From Acidimicrobium ferrooxidans (GTDB taxonomy: Bacteria; Actinomycetota; Geothermincolia; Fen-727; Anoxymicrobiaceae): 64,000 bases of DNA. The notes under the pieces were generated by a model. That model did no database searches. It was not told the origin of the DNA and worked only from the letters and a program-made list of their open reading frames with translations. The stretch spans positions 171,603-235,602 of the forward strand of contig DYIU01000005.1 in assembly GCA_020723485.1 (NCBI GenBank), written 5' to 3'. Below are positions 61,676 to 62,475 of the stretch, in pieces; positions within the stretch are counted from its first letter, which is position 1; every line of letters begins with the position of its first letter. A program made the position numbers and the translations under genes.

Positions 61676-61969
61676 ATGATAGAACTGGACTGCCTCGAGC
61701 AGGTCGATGGCGGAAAGAATGACCATGACCTAGTGCTGTTCGCCCTCAGCACCTGCCCGCACTGCCGCAACGCCAGGAACTTCCTGGACAACAACGATGT
61801 GGCATACAGGTTCGTCTACCTGGACAAGCTGGAGGGCGACGAGCAGAAGCAGGTCCTCGACGAAGCATCAAAATTCAACCCGAGGAGGTCCTTCCCCACG
61901 CTGGTGATCGACGATGACGAGGTCCTCGTCGGTTTCACGGAGGCAGACTGGAGGACGAAGCTGCTTTGA
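61676..61969 (+). CDS. Glutaredoxin-like protein (CPHC)
   Basis: LVLFALSTCPHCRNARNFLDNNDVAYRFVYLDKL...RRSFPTLVIDDDEVLVGFTEADWRTKL. Confidence 0.9.
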   Translation: MIELDCLEQVDGGKNDHDLVLFALSTCPHCRNARNFLDNNDVAYRFVYLDKLEGDEQKQVLDEASKFNPRRSFPTLVIDDDEVLVGFTEADWRTKLL

Positions 61970-62475
61970 GCCCGGAGGTCTCGACCGAGGAAATCGAGGA
62001 GGTCCACCGGCGACTCGTCAGTGACGCCGAGGCATCCGGGTATCACATTAACCCGGACGTGCCATTCGCACTGGCCCTTGCCGAAGGGCTTGCCGTCAAT
62101 GCCGCCCGATATGGTTACGAGCTGTGCCCCTGCCGGTTGACCGGTGGGAGCAGAGAGCTCGACATCGACATCATCTGCCCCTGCGACTACAGGGACGCGG
62201 ACCTGGACGAATACGACACCTGCTACTGAGGGCTCTACGTCTCCAGGCGTGTCCTGGAGGGCGAGGCCGAGGTGGCGTCCATCCCGGAGAGGCGTCCGGA
62301 AGAGAGGCCCGTGATGGCTGAAGCCGGTGACAGGCCGGGCCCCGAGGGCTCCGGCGAGATCAAGGTCTGGAGATGCAAGGTATGCGGCTACCTCTGCGCC
62401 AGGGCCGGCCCGCCCGAGACGTGCCCTATCTGCAAGGTCTCGCGCGAGCGCTTCGAGCCGTTCGATTTCCCCTGA
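61966..62475 (+). CDS. Putative selenoprotein: FTR catalytic-subunit-like domain + rubredoxin-like domain, in-frame TGA at 62227-62229 read as Sec88
   Basis: TTG 61966 overlaps the glutaredoxin stop; ELCPCRL...IICPCDYRDADLDEYDTCY[TGA]GLYVSRRVLEG...EIKVWRCKVCGYLCARAGPPETCPICKVSRERFEPFDFP*; ORFs 61966-62229 and 62272-62475 share a frame. Confidence 0.85.
62241..62259 (+). promoter_or_regulatory. Putative bacterial SECIS hairpin for the FTR-like gene
   Basis: CTCCAGG-CGTGT-CCTGGAG: 7-bp perfect stem, 5-nt loop with G at position 2, 18 nt between TGA and loop. Confidence 0.7.

What the first reader, a model, noticed from the sequence alone, without database searches (positions are those of the whole stretch)
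61966..62475. FTR-like/rubredoxin fusion with in-frame TGA at the active-site Cys: candidate selenoprotein
Seen: one reading frame runs 61966-62475 with a single internal TGA (62227-62229) and no other stop. It sits in CPC-X14-CPC-X12-CY[TGA]-GLYVS. Established: FTR catalytic subunits carry CPC...CPC...CHC (or CYC), and the last Cys of that set is one of the two redox-active cysteines beside the 4Fe-4S cluster (Cys87 in the plant enzyme). Inference: TGA encodes Sec at this residue, giving a 169-aa protein with a C-terminal rubredoxin-like CxxCG...CPxC domain. Ordinary callers would truncate it just before Sec and call a false ORF at 62272.
Basis: partly seen in the sequence, partly recalled or inferred. 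Interest (0 to 1): 0.92.

Follow-up and report, generated by a model that had tools for sequence, protein, structure and literature searches.

The report
Selenium version of ferredoxin:disulfide reductase
A deep-branching Actinomycetota bacterium very probably makes its ferredoxin-driven disulfide-reducing enzyme with selenocysteine in place of one of the two catalytic cysteines, a selenium form of a known enzyme that gene callers cut into two false pieces.

Summary
One frame, 61966-62475, has a single internal TGA (62227-62229) and encodes an FTR catalytic domain fused to a rubredoxin domain. In 121 distinct homologous loci the aligned codon is TGA (21), TGC (71) or TGT (29), never anything else. 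The genome carries selD (itself with an in-frame TGA), selA, selB and tRNA-Sec. selA is present in 21/21 genomes with the TGA form against 11/27 with the Cys form. All 21 TGA copies have a SECIS-like hairpin 21-26 nt downstream, and the protein after the TGA is under purifying selection.

The identity needs sharpening: it is a ferredoxin:disulfide (ferredoxin:glutaredoxin) reductase, FDR, not a plant-type FTR. The closest solved structure, Methanosarcina acetivorans FDR (4TPU), matches over its whole length.

Sec-containing FTRs have been known since 2008, and Sec CoA-disulfide reductases are also known. I found no report of Sec in rubredoxin-fused FDRs. It is a well-supported new variant of a known kind.

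The parts
61676..61969 (+). Glutaredoxin-like protein, 97 aa, CPHC active site; presumed electron acceptor of the reductase
   Evidence: Pfam Glutaredoxin E=4.8e-12; a relative sits just upstream of the reductase in nearly all homologous loci; fused to FDR in Desulfotalea (PDB 7PWE)
61966..62475 (+). Sec-containing ferredoxin:disulfide reductase (FTRc domain + C-terminal rubredoxin domain), 169 aa with U88
62227..62229 (+). In-frame TGA read as selenocysteine 88 (position of the cluster-facing redox Cys, Cys87 in FTR)
   Evidence: TGA/TGC/TGT = 21/71/29 at this column in 121 homologs
62240..62260 (+). SECIS-like hairpin UCUCCAGG-CGUGU-CCUGGAGG, loop 21 nt after the U of UGA
   Evidence: a hairpin of this kind in all 21 TGA copies against 34/100 Cys copies
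62368..62457 (+). Rubredoxin domain (CKVC...CPIC), read only if the TGA is translated
   Evidence: Pfam RUBY_RBDX residues 135-164, E=5.2e-13
62499..63896 (+). Second selenoprotein: CoA-disulfide-reductase-like FAD/NAD(P)H enzyme, TTG start, 465 aa
   Evidence: Pyr_redox_2 E=3.2e-65 and Pyr_redox_dim; TIGR03385 E=1.5e-125 (below the curated cut-off)
62625..62627 (+). In-frame TGA at the active-site Cys of the CoA-disulfide-reductase-like enzyme (SYAG-U-GMPYY)
   Evidence: conserved TGA in four relatives of the same family
62644..62662 (+). SECIS-like hairpin UCAGCGG-CGUGA-CCGCUGA, loop 26 nt after the U of UGA
   Evidence: same hairpin in four relatives, with a compensatory A-U to G-C change in L025

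Best explanation
The gene encodes a ferredoxin:disulfide reductase (FDR; also annotated ferredoxin:glutaredoxin reductase) in which the cluster-facing redox cysteine is selenocysteine, inserted at UGA by SelB/tRNA-Sec with the help of an in-gene SECIS hairpin. Proposed working: reduced ferredoxin passes single electrons, probably through the C-terminal rubredoxin iron, to the active-site [4Fe-4S] cluster (ligands C54, C71, C73, C86). The cluster reduces a Cys56-Sec88 selenenylsulfide in two one-electron steps, with Sec88 selenolate held at the cluster in the intermediate. The freed Cys56 thiol attacks the disulfide of the partner glutaredoxin encoded directly upstream, and Sec88 resolves the mixed disulfide. 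Shown here: frame, Sec/Cys interchange, sel genes, hairpin, domains, operon. Inferred from homologs: cluster ligation, electron path, acceptor. Inferred only: the kinetic or redox benefit of Se. The confidence given is for Sec in an FDR; the acceptor and electron path are less certain (about 0.75).
For: TGA aligns with Cys in 100/100 Cys homologs and 20 further homologs share the TGA. selD-selA-selB-tRNA-Sec cluster on contig C5 and a formate dehydrogenase alpha gene with an in-frame TGA in the same genome. selA present in 21/21 TGA-FDR genomes versus 11/27 Cys-FDR genomes, Fisher 6e-6. SECIS-like hairpin in 21/21 versus 34/100, Fisher 5e-9; mean synonymous-shuffle z -1.22 (all 21 negative) versus -0.03 in Cys copies. 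Downstream of the TGA most differences between relatives are at codon position 3, as upstream. Full-length profile match to M. acetivorans FDR 4TPU, E=3.5e-73, also best by fold. Glutaredoxin gene upstream in nearly all loci across bacteria and archaea.
Against: No protein-level evidence. Homologs are mostly metagenome-assembled genomes. The synonymous-shuffle test is weak for single sequences (3 of 21 at p<0.05), and by it the Chloroflexota hairpins are hardly more stable than expected. G305 lacks a clear tRNA-Sec and L152 is cut by a contig end. Fisher tests are not corrected for relatedness. Acceptor and donor were not tested in this organism.
Confidence: 0.92

Rival explanations
1. The TGA is a true stop or a degraded codon: a recently broken FDR gene (or a sequencing error), with the rubredoxin piece left as debris.
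For: Standard code reads a stop; the relatives are mostly MAG-level sequence.
Against: The same TGA recurs in 20 further genomes of two phyla, always at this codon and never elsewhere. The downstream part keeps its frame and amino acids with changes mostly at third positions. TGA genomes always have selA.
Confidence: 0.03
2. The organism reads TGA as another amino acid generally (code change to Trp, Gly or Cys) or by unspecific readthrough.
For: An open frame results under any such code.
Against: TGA is the commonest terminator of long ORFs in the window (28 of 50) and ends this gene and the upstream glutaredoxin gene. The aligned residue is Cys, not Trp or Gly. A tRNA-Sec with TCA anticodon is present.
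Confidence: 0.01
3. Sec is inserted, but the enzyme's main partner is not the adjacent glutaredoxin/ferredoxin pair: for example it works with the downstream NAD(P)H flavo-selenoprotein in CoA- or polysulfide-disulfide reduction, with the rubredoxin domain fed by NAD(P)H.
For: The CoA-disulfide-reductase-like Sec gene is directly downstream here and in four relatives; flavoenzymes of this superfamily include rubredoxin reductases.
Against: The flavoenzyme gene was found beside the reductase only in the window's own family (five loci), whereas the glutaredoxin is beside it almost everywhere. Characterised FDRs use ferredoxin (PMC6262447).
Confidence: 0.12

Closest known systems
Methanosarcina acetivorans ferredoxin:disulfide reductase (FDR, PDB 4TPU)
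   Same: Same domain order (FTRc + rubredoxin), CPC/CPC/CYC with Tyr in place of plant His; full-length profile match E=3.5e-73, top fold match.
   Different: Its last active-site residue is Cys; here it is encoded by TGA (Sec).
FtrB double-selenoprotein family (NCBIfam NF041072; GOS FTR selenoproteins, PMC2398784)
   Same: FTR catalytic domain with Sec at redox Cys positions, including the CxU motif (PMC13188914).
   Different: The double-Sec family is named for two Sec, and its profile (121 positions) is too short to hold a rubredoxin domain. The window protein scores 45 bits against a cut-off of 160 and keeps Cys at the first redox position.
Grx/FDR fusion protein of Desulfotalea psychrophila (PDB 7PWE)
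   Same: FDR domain physically joined to a glutaredoxin, as the two genes are adjacent here.
   Different: One polypeptide and no rubredoxin in the match; Cys form.
Sec-containing CoA-disulfide reductase (TIGR03385, motif UGxP, PMC13188914)
   Same: The downstream gene has U-G-M-P at the same active-site position.
   Different: Scores below the TIGR03385 cut-off (419 of 578.8 bits), so substrate may differ.
Plant/cyanobacterial FTR catalytic subunit (1DJ7, 2PU9)
   Same: [4Fe-4S] disulfide-reductase fold and Cys pattern.
   Different: CHC motif, needs a variable subunit (own knowledge), no rubredoxin domain, Cys not Sec.

Membership tests
Ferredoxin:disulfide reductase (FDR) family | FTRc catalytic domain with CPC...CPC...C-x-C(U) | tested here: met
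   FeThRed_B E=4.7e-19; C54, C56, C71, C73, C86 and the C/U88 column invariant in alignment
Ferredoxin:disulfide reductase (FDR) family | Fused C-terminal rubredoxin domain | tested here: met
   RUBY_RBDX residues 135-164; 4TPU aligned over the whole length
Ferredoxin:disulfide reductase (FDR) family | Tyr in place of the FTR active-site His (CYC) | tested here: met
   Y87 conserved
Ferredoxin:disulfide reductase (FDR) family | Reduced by ferredoxin; active-site [4Fe-4S] | not testable with these tools
   Needs purified protein
Bacterial UGA-Sec selenoprotein | selA, selB, selC, selD in the genome | tested here: met
Bacterial UGA-Sec selenoprotein | Cys homologs at the UGA position | tested here: met
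   100 Cys, 21 TGA, 0 other
Bacterial UGA-Sec selenoprotein | SECIS hairpin shortly after UGA with G in the apical loop | tested here: met
   bSECISearch itself was not available
Bacterial UGA-Sec selenoprotein | Se incorporation in the protein | not testable with these tools
   Needs 75Se labelling or proteomics
FtrB double-selenoprotein (NF041072) | Score above curated cut-off; two Sec residues | tested here: not met
   45.2 bits against 160; residue 56 is Cys, invariant in the alignments
CoA-disulfide reductase TIGR03385 (downstream gene) | Score above curated cut-off | tested here: not met
   419.4 bits against 578.8; resembles it and aligns U42 with the active-site Cys

The most novel reading that the evidence does not exclude
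A whole lineage of rubredoxin-fused ferredoxin:disulfide reductases uses a selenolate as the cluster-facing residue, so that catalysis passes through a selenium-bound [4Fe-4S] intermediate and a Cys-Sec selenenylsulfide. In the window's family it is paired with a second selenoenzyme in one operon as a selenium-tuned anaerobic disulfide-reducing module.
Probability: 0.5. Interest if true: 0.6.

Novelty: new variant of a known kind. Interest (0 to 1): 0.52.

Why it matters
The role of the cluster-facing cysteine in FTR/FDR chemistry (how two one-electron steps cleave a disulfide at a 4Fe-4S cluster) has been studied by mutants and spectroscopy. A natural Sec/Cys swap at exactly that residue, with sister enzymes of both kinds, gives a direct handle: 77Se couplings and redox potentials at the cluster. 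It also shows members of a widespread redox enzyme family that standard-code gene calling would split into two false ORFs, and adds two linked selenoproteins to a little-known Actinomycetota class.

Tried and rejected
Pseudogene, sequencing error and general TGA recoding were considered and rejected (see rivals). The hits marked '1 TAG' in family f31 looked at first like possible UAG recoding, but their residue at the site is Cys; TAG was not found at that codon. Membership in NF041072 was tested and not met. Rfam found nothing in the window at gathering scores. Per-sequence synonymous shuffles were too weak singly; only the group contrast is informative. A scan of the window for other in-frame TGA genes by codon usage showed no further obvious case with a Cys-like context; those candidates were not followed up. 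The primary FDR papers (JBC 2018; Biochemistry 2015, PMC4697749) are not held, so their content is cited only second-hand through PMC6262447 and PMC7278568 or from my own knowledge. Literature searches for a selenoprotein FDR or for selenoproteins in this Actinomycetota group gave nothing on point; the library is open-access only.

Full report
OBSERVATION. Reading 61966-62475 with TGA as Sec gives 169 residues with one internal TGA (residue 88, 62227-62229) and a TGA terminator. Pfam places an FTR catalytic domain across the TGA (residues 12-96) and a rubrerythrin-type rubredoxin domain after it (135-164). The TTG start overlaps the stop of a glutaredoxin-like gene (61676-61969).

IS THE TGA READ AS SEC? 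Five lines of evidence agree. First, homologs: a search of 299 genomes of the phylum, the 32 held genomes of the class and a scan of GTDB species genomes gave 121 distinct loci in which the codon aligned with the TGA could be read. It is TGC in 71, TGT in 29, TGA in 21, and nothing else. Nineteen TGA copies are in the window's own class of Actinomycetota (the phylum name comes from records L069, L070 and L092, whose sequences equal those of relatives of the window) and two in Chloroflexota MAGs (L108, L141).

Second, machinery: selD (with an in-frame TGA of its own), selA, selB and tRNA-Sec (ARAGORN: anticodon TCA) lie together on contig C5 of the same genome, and a formate dehydrogenase alpha gene also has an in-frame TGA. 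The remaining RF01852 hits near 50 bits are probably class II tRNAs, since all 14 control genomes ring too. Across genomes, selA is present in 21 of 21 with the TGA form and 11 of 27 with the Cys form (Fisher 6e-6, not corrected for relatedness).

Third, SECIS: every TGA copy has a hairpin of at least 5 bp with a G in the first two loop positions, loop starting 21-26 nt after the U of UGA; 34 of 100 Cys copies do. Three forms occur: UCUCCAGG-CGUGU-CCUGGAGG in the window's family, CCAGG-AGGU-CCUGG in family f4, GGCCGU-CGUGA-AUGGCC in Chloroflexota. Given the protein, folding of this stretch is stronger than synonymous shuffles in all 21 TGA copies (mean z -1.22; Cys copies -0.03), although few single sequences are significant.

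Fourth, selection: after the TGA, third-position changes exceed first- and second-position changes between relatives just as before it. Fifth, TGA is otherwise a normal stop: 28 of 50 long ORFs in the window end with it.

WHAT PROTEIN IS IT? The profile of the family matches M. acetivorans ferredoxin:disulfide reductase (4TPU) end to end, E=3.5e-73, and the Grx/FDR fusion of Desulfotalea (7PWE) next; plant FTR chains follow far behind. An AlphaFold2 model (mean pLDDT 84.5, pTM 0.67) gives the same order. The high overall rmsd to 4TPU (19.8) probably reflects uncertain placement of the two domains around the low-confidence linker 117-128. Database names for relatives are 'ferredoxin-thioredoxin reductase catalytic subunit/rubredoxin' and 'ferredoxin:glutaredoxin reductase'. 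A glutaredoxin-like gene sits directly upstream in nearly every locus examined, in bacteria and archaea. FDRs are known to be Fe-S, ferredoxin-dependent enzymes related to FTRc that reduce a Trx-like protein in Methanosarcina (PMC6262447; PMC7278568).

MECHANISM. From established FTR work (own knowledge: Cys57-Cys87 disulfide beside a 4Fe-4S cluster, Cys87 facing the cluster, Cys57 exposed), residue 56 here is the exposed nucleophile and residue 88 the cluster-facing partner. Sec at 88 would make the resting bond a selenenylsulfide and put selenolate at the cluster in the one-electron intermediate. Electrons probably reach the cluster via the rubredoxin iron, as proposed for FDR (own knowledge; the primary paper is not held). 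The natural acceptor is most likely the adjacent glutaredoxin, and through it perhaps the anaerobic ribonucleotide reductase, whose gene (NrdD) is in the genome; the title of a 2015 paper in the reference list of PMC6262447 reports that an FDR feeds the class III enzyme of M. barkeri. These last steps are inference.

SECOND SELENOPROTEIN. The next gene, 62499-63896, is a CoA-disulfide-reductase-like flavoenzyme with TGA at 62625-62627 where relatives have the redox Cys (SFANCGLPY in 4OCG). Four relatives keep the TGA and a hairpin of the form UCRGCGG-CGUGM-CCGCYGA, one of them with a compensatory pair change. In G276 (L022) the reductase has TGC while the flavoenzyme keeps TGA, and the reductase mRNA still carries the hairpin sequence, suggesting a recent Sec-to-Cys change.

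EVOLUTION. On a tree of 121 proteins the Sec state needs 6 changes (at least 5 forced by well-supported branches): repeated exchange with Cys, with the Chloroflexota copies apart from the Actinomycetota ones. The tree has few columns and many open forks, so the exact number of gains is not settled.

NOVELTY. Sec in FTR was reported from ocean metagenomes in 2008 (two sequences, one with two Sec; PMC2398784), and recent reviews list FTR (CxU) and CoA-disulfide reductase (UGxP) selenoproteins. The curated FTR selenoprotein family is the double-Sec NF041072, which the window protein does not meet. I found no report of Sec in the rubredoxin-fused FDR family, within an open-access library only. Hence: new variant of a known kind, solidly predicted, not experimentally shown.

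Noticed in passing
window 62499-63896 (TGA 62625-62627): A second selenoprotein directly downstream: CoA-disulfide-reductase-like flavoenzyme with Sec at the redox Cys and a 7-bp SECIS-like hairpin.
   Followed up: yes
L028, L029, L030, L034, L036, L037, L041, L043, L052, L115: In family f4 the reductase carries two tandem rubredoxin domains that are nearly identical within a genome (1-9 nt differences of about 100) but differ between genomes, suggesting ongoing gene conversion or repeated duplication.
   Followed up: partly
L022 (G276): Reductase has TGC at the Sec codon but keeps the SECIS-like hairpin sequence and a TGA-containing downstream flavoenzyme: looks like a recent Sec-to-Cys reversion.
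   Followed up: partly
L068 / G000 C5:592965-598104: selD (with in-frame TGA)-selA-selB-tRNA-Sec cluster in the window's genome.
   Followed up: yes
L156 (G000 C1:10716-12737) and L159 (G000 C5:605054-605506): Further genes of the formate dehydrogenase alpha family with an in-frame TGA; the exact residue was not checked.
   Followed up: no
window 60503-61726 (-), 59872-60357 (-), 57193-59775 (-): Neighbours are a membrane dipeptidase (M19), a CopC-domain protein and a P-type cation ATPase; no sign that they belong to the operon.
   Followed up: partly
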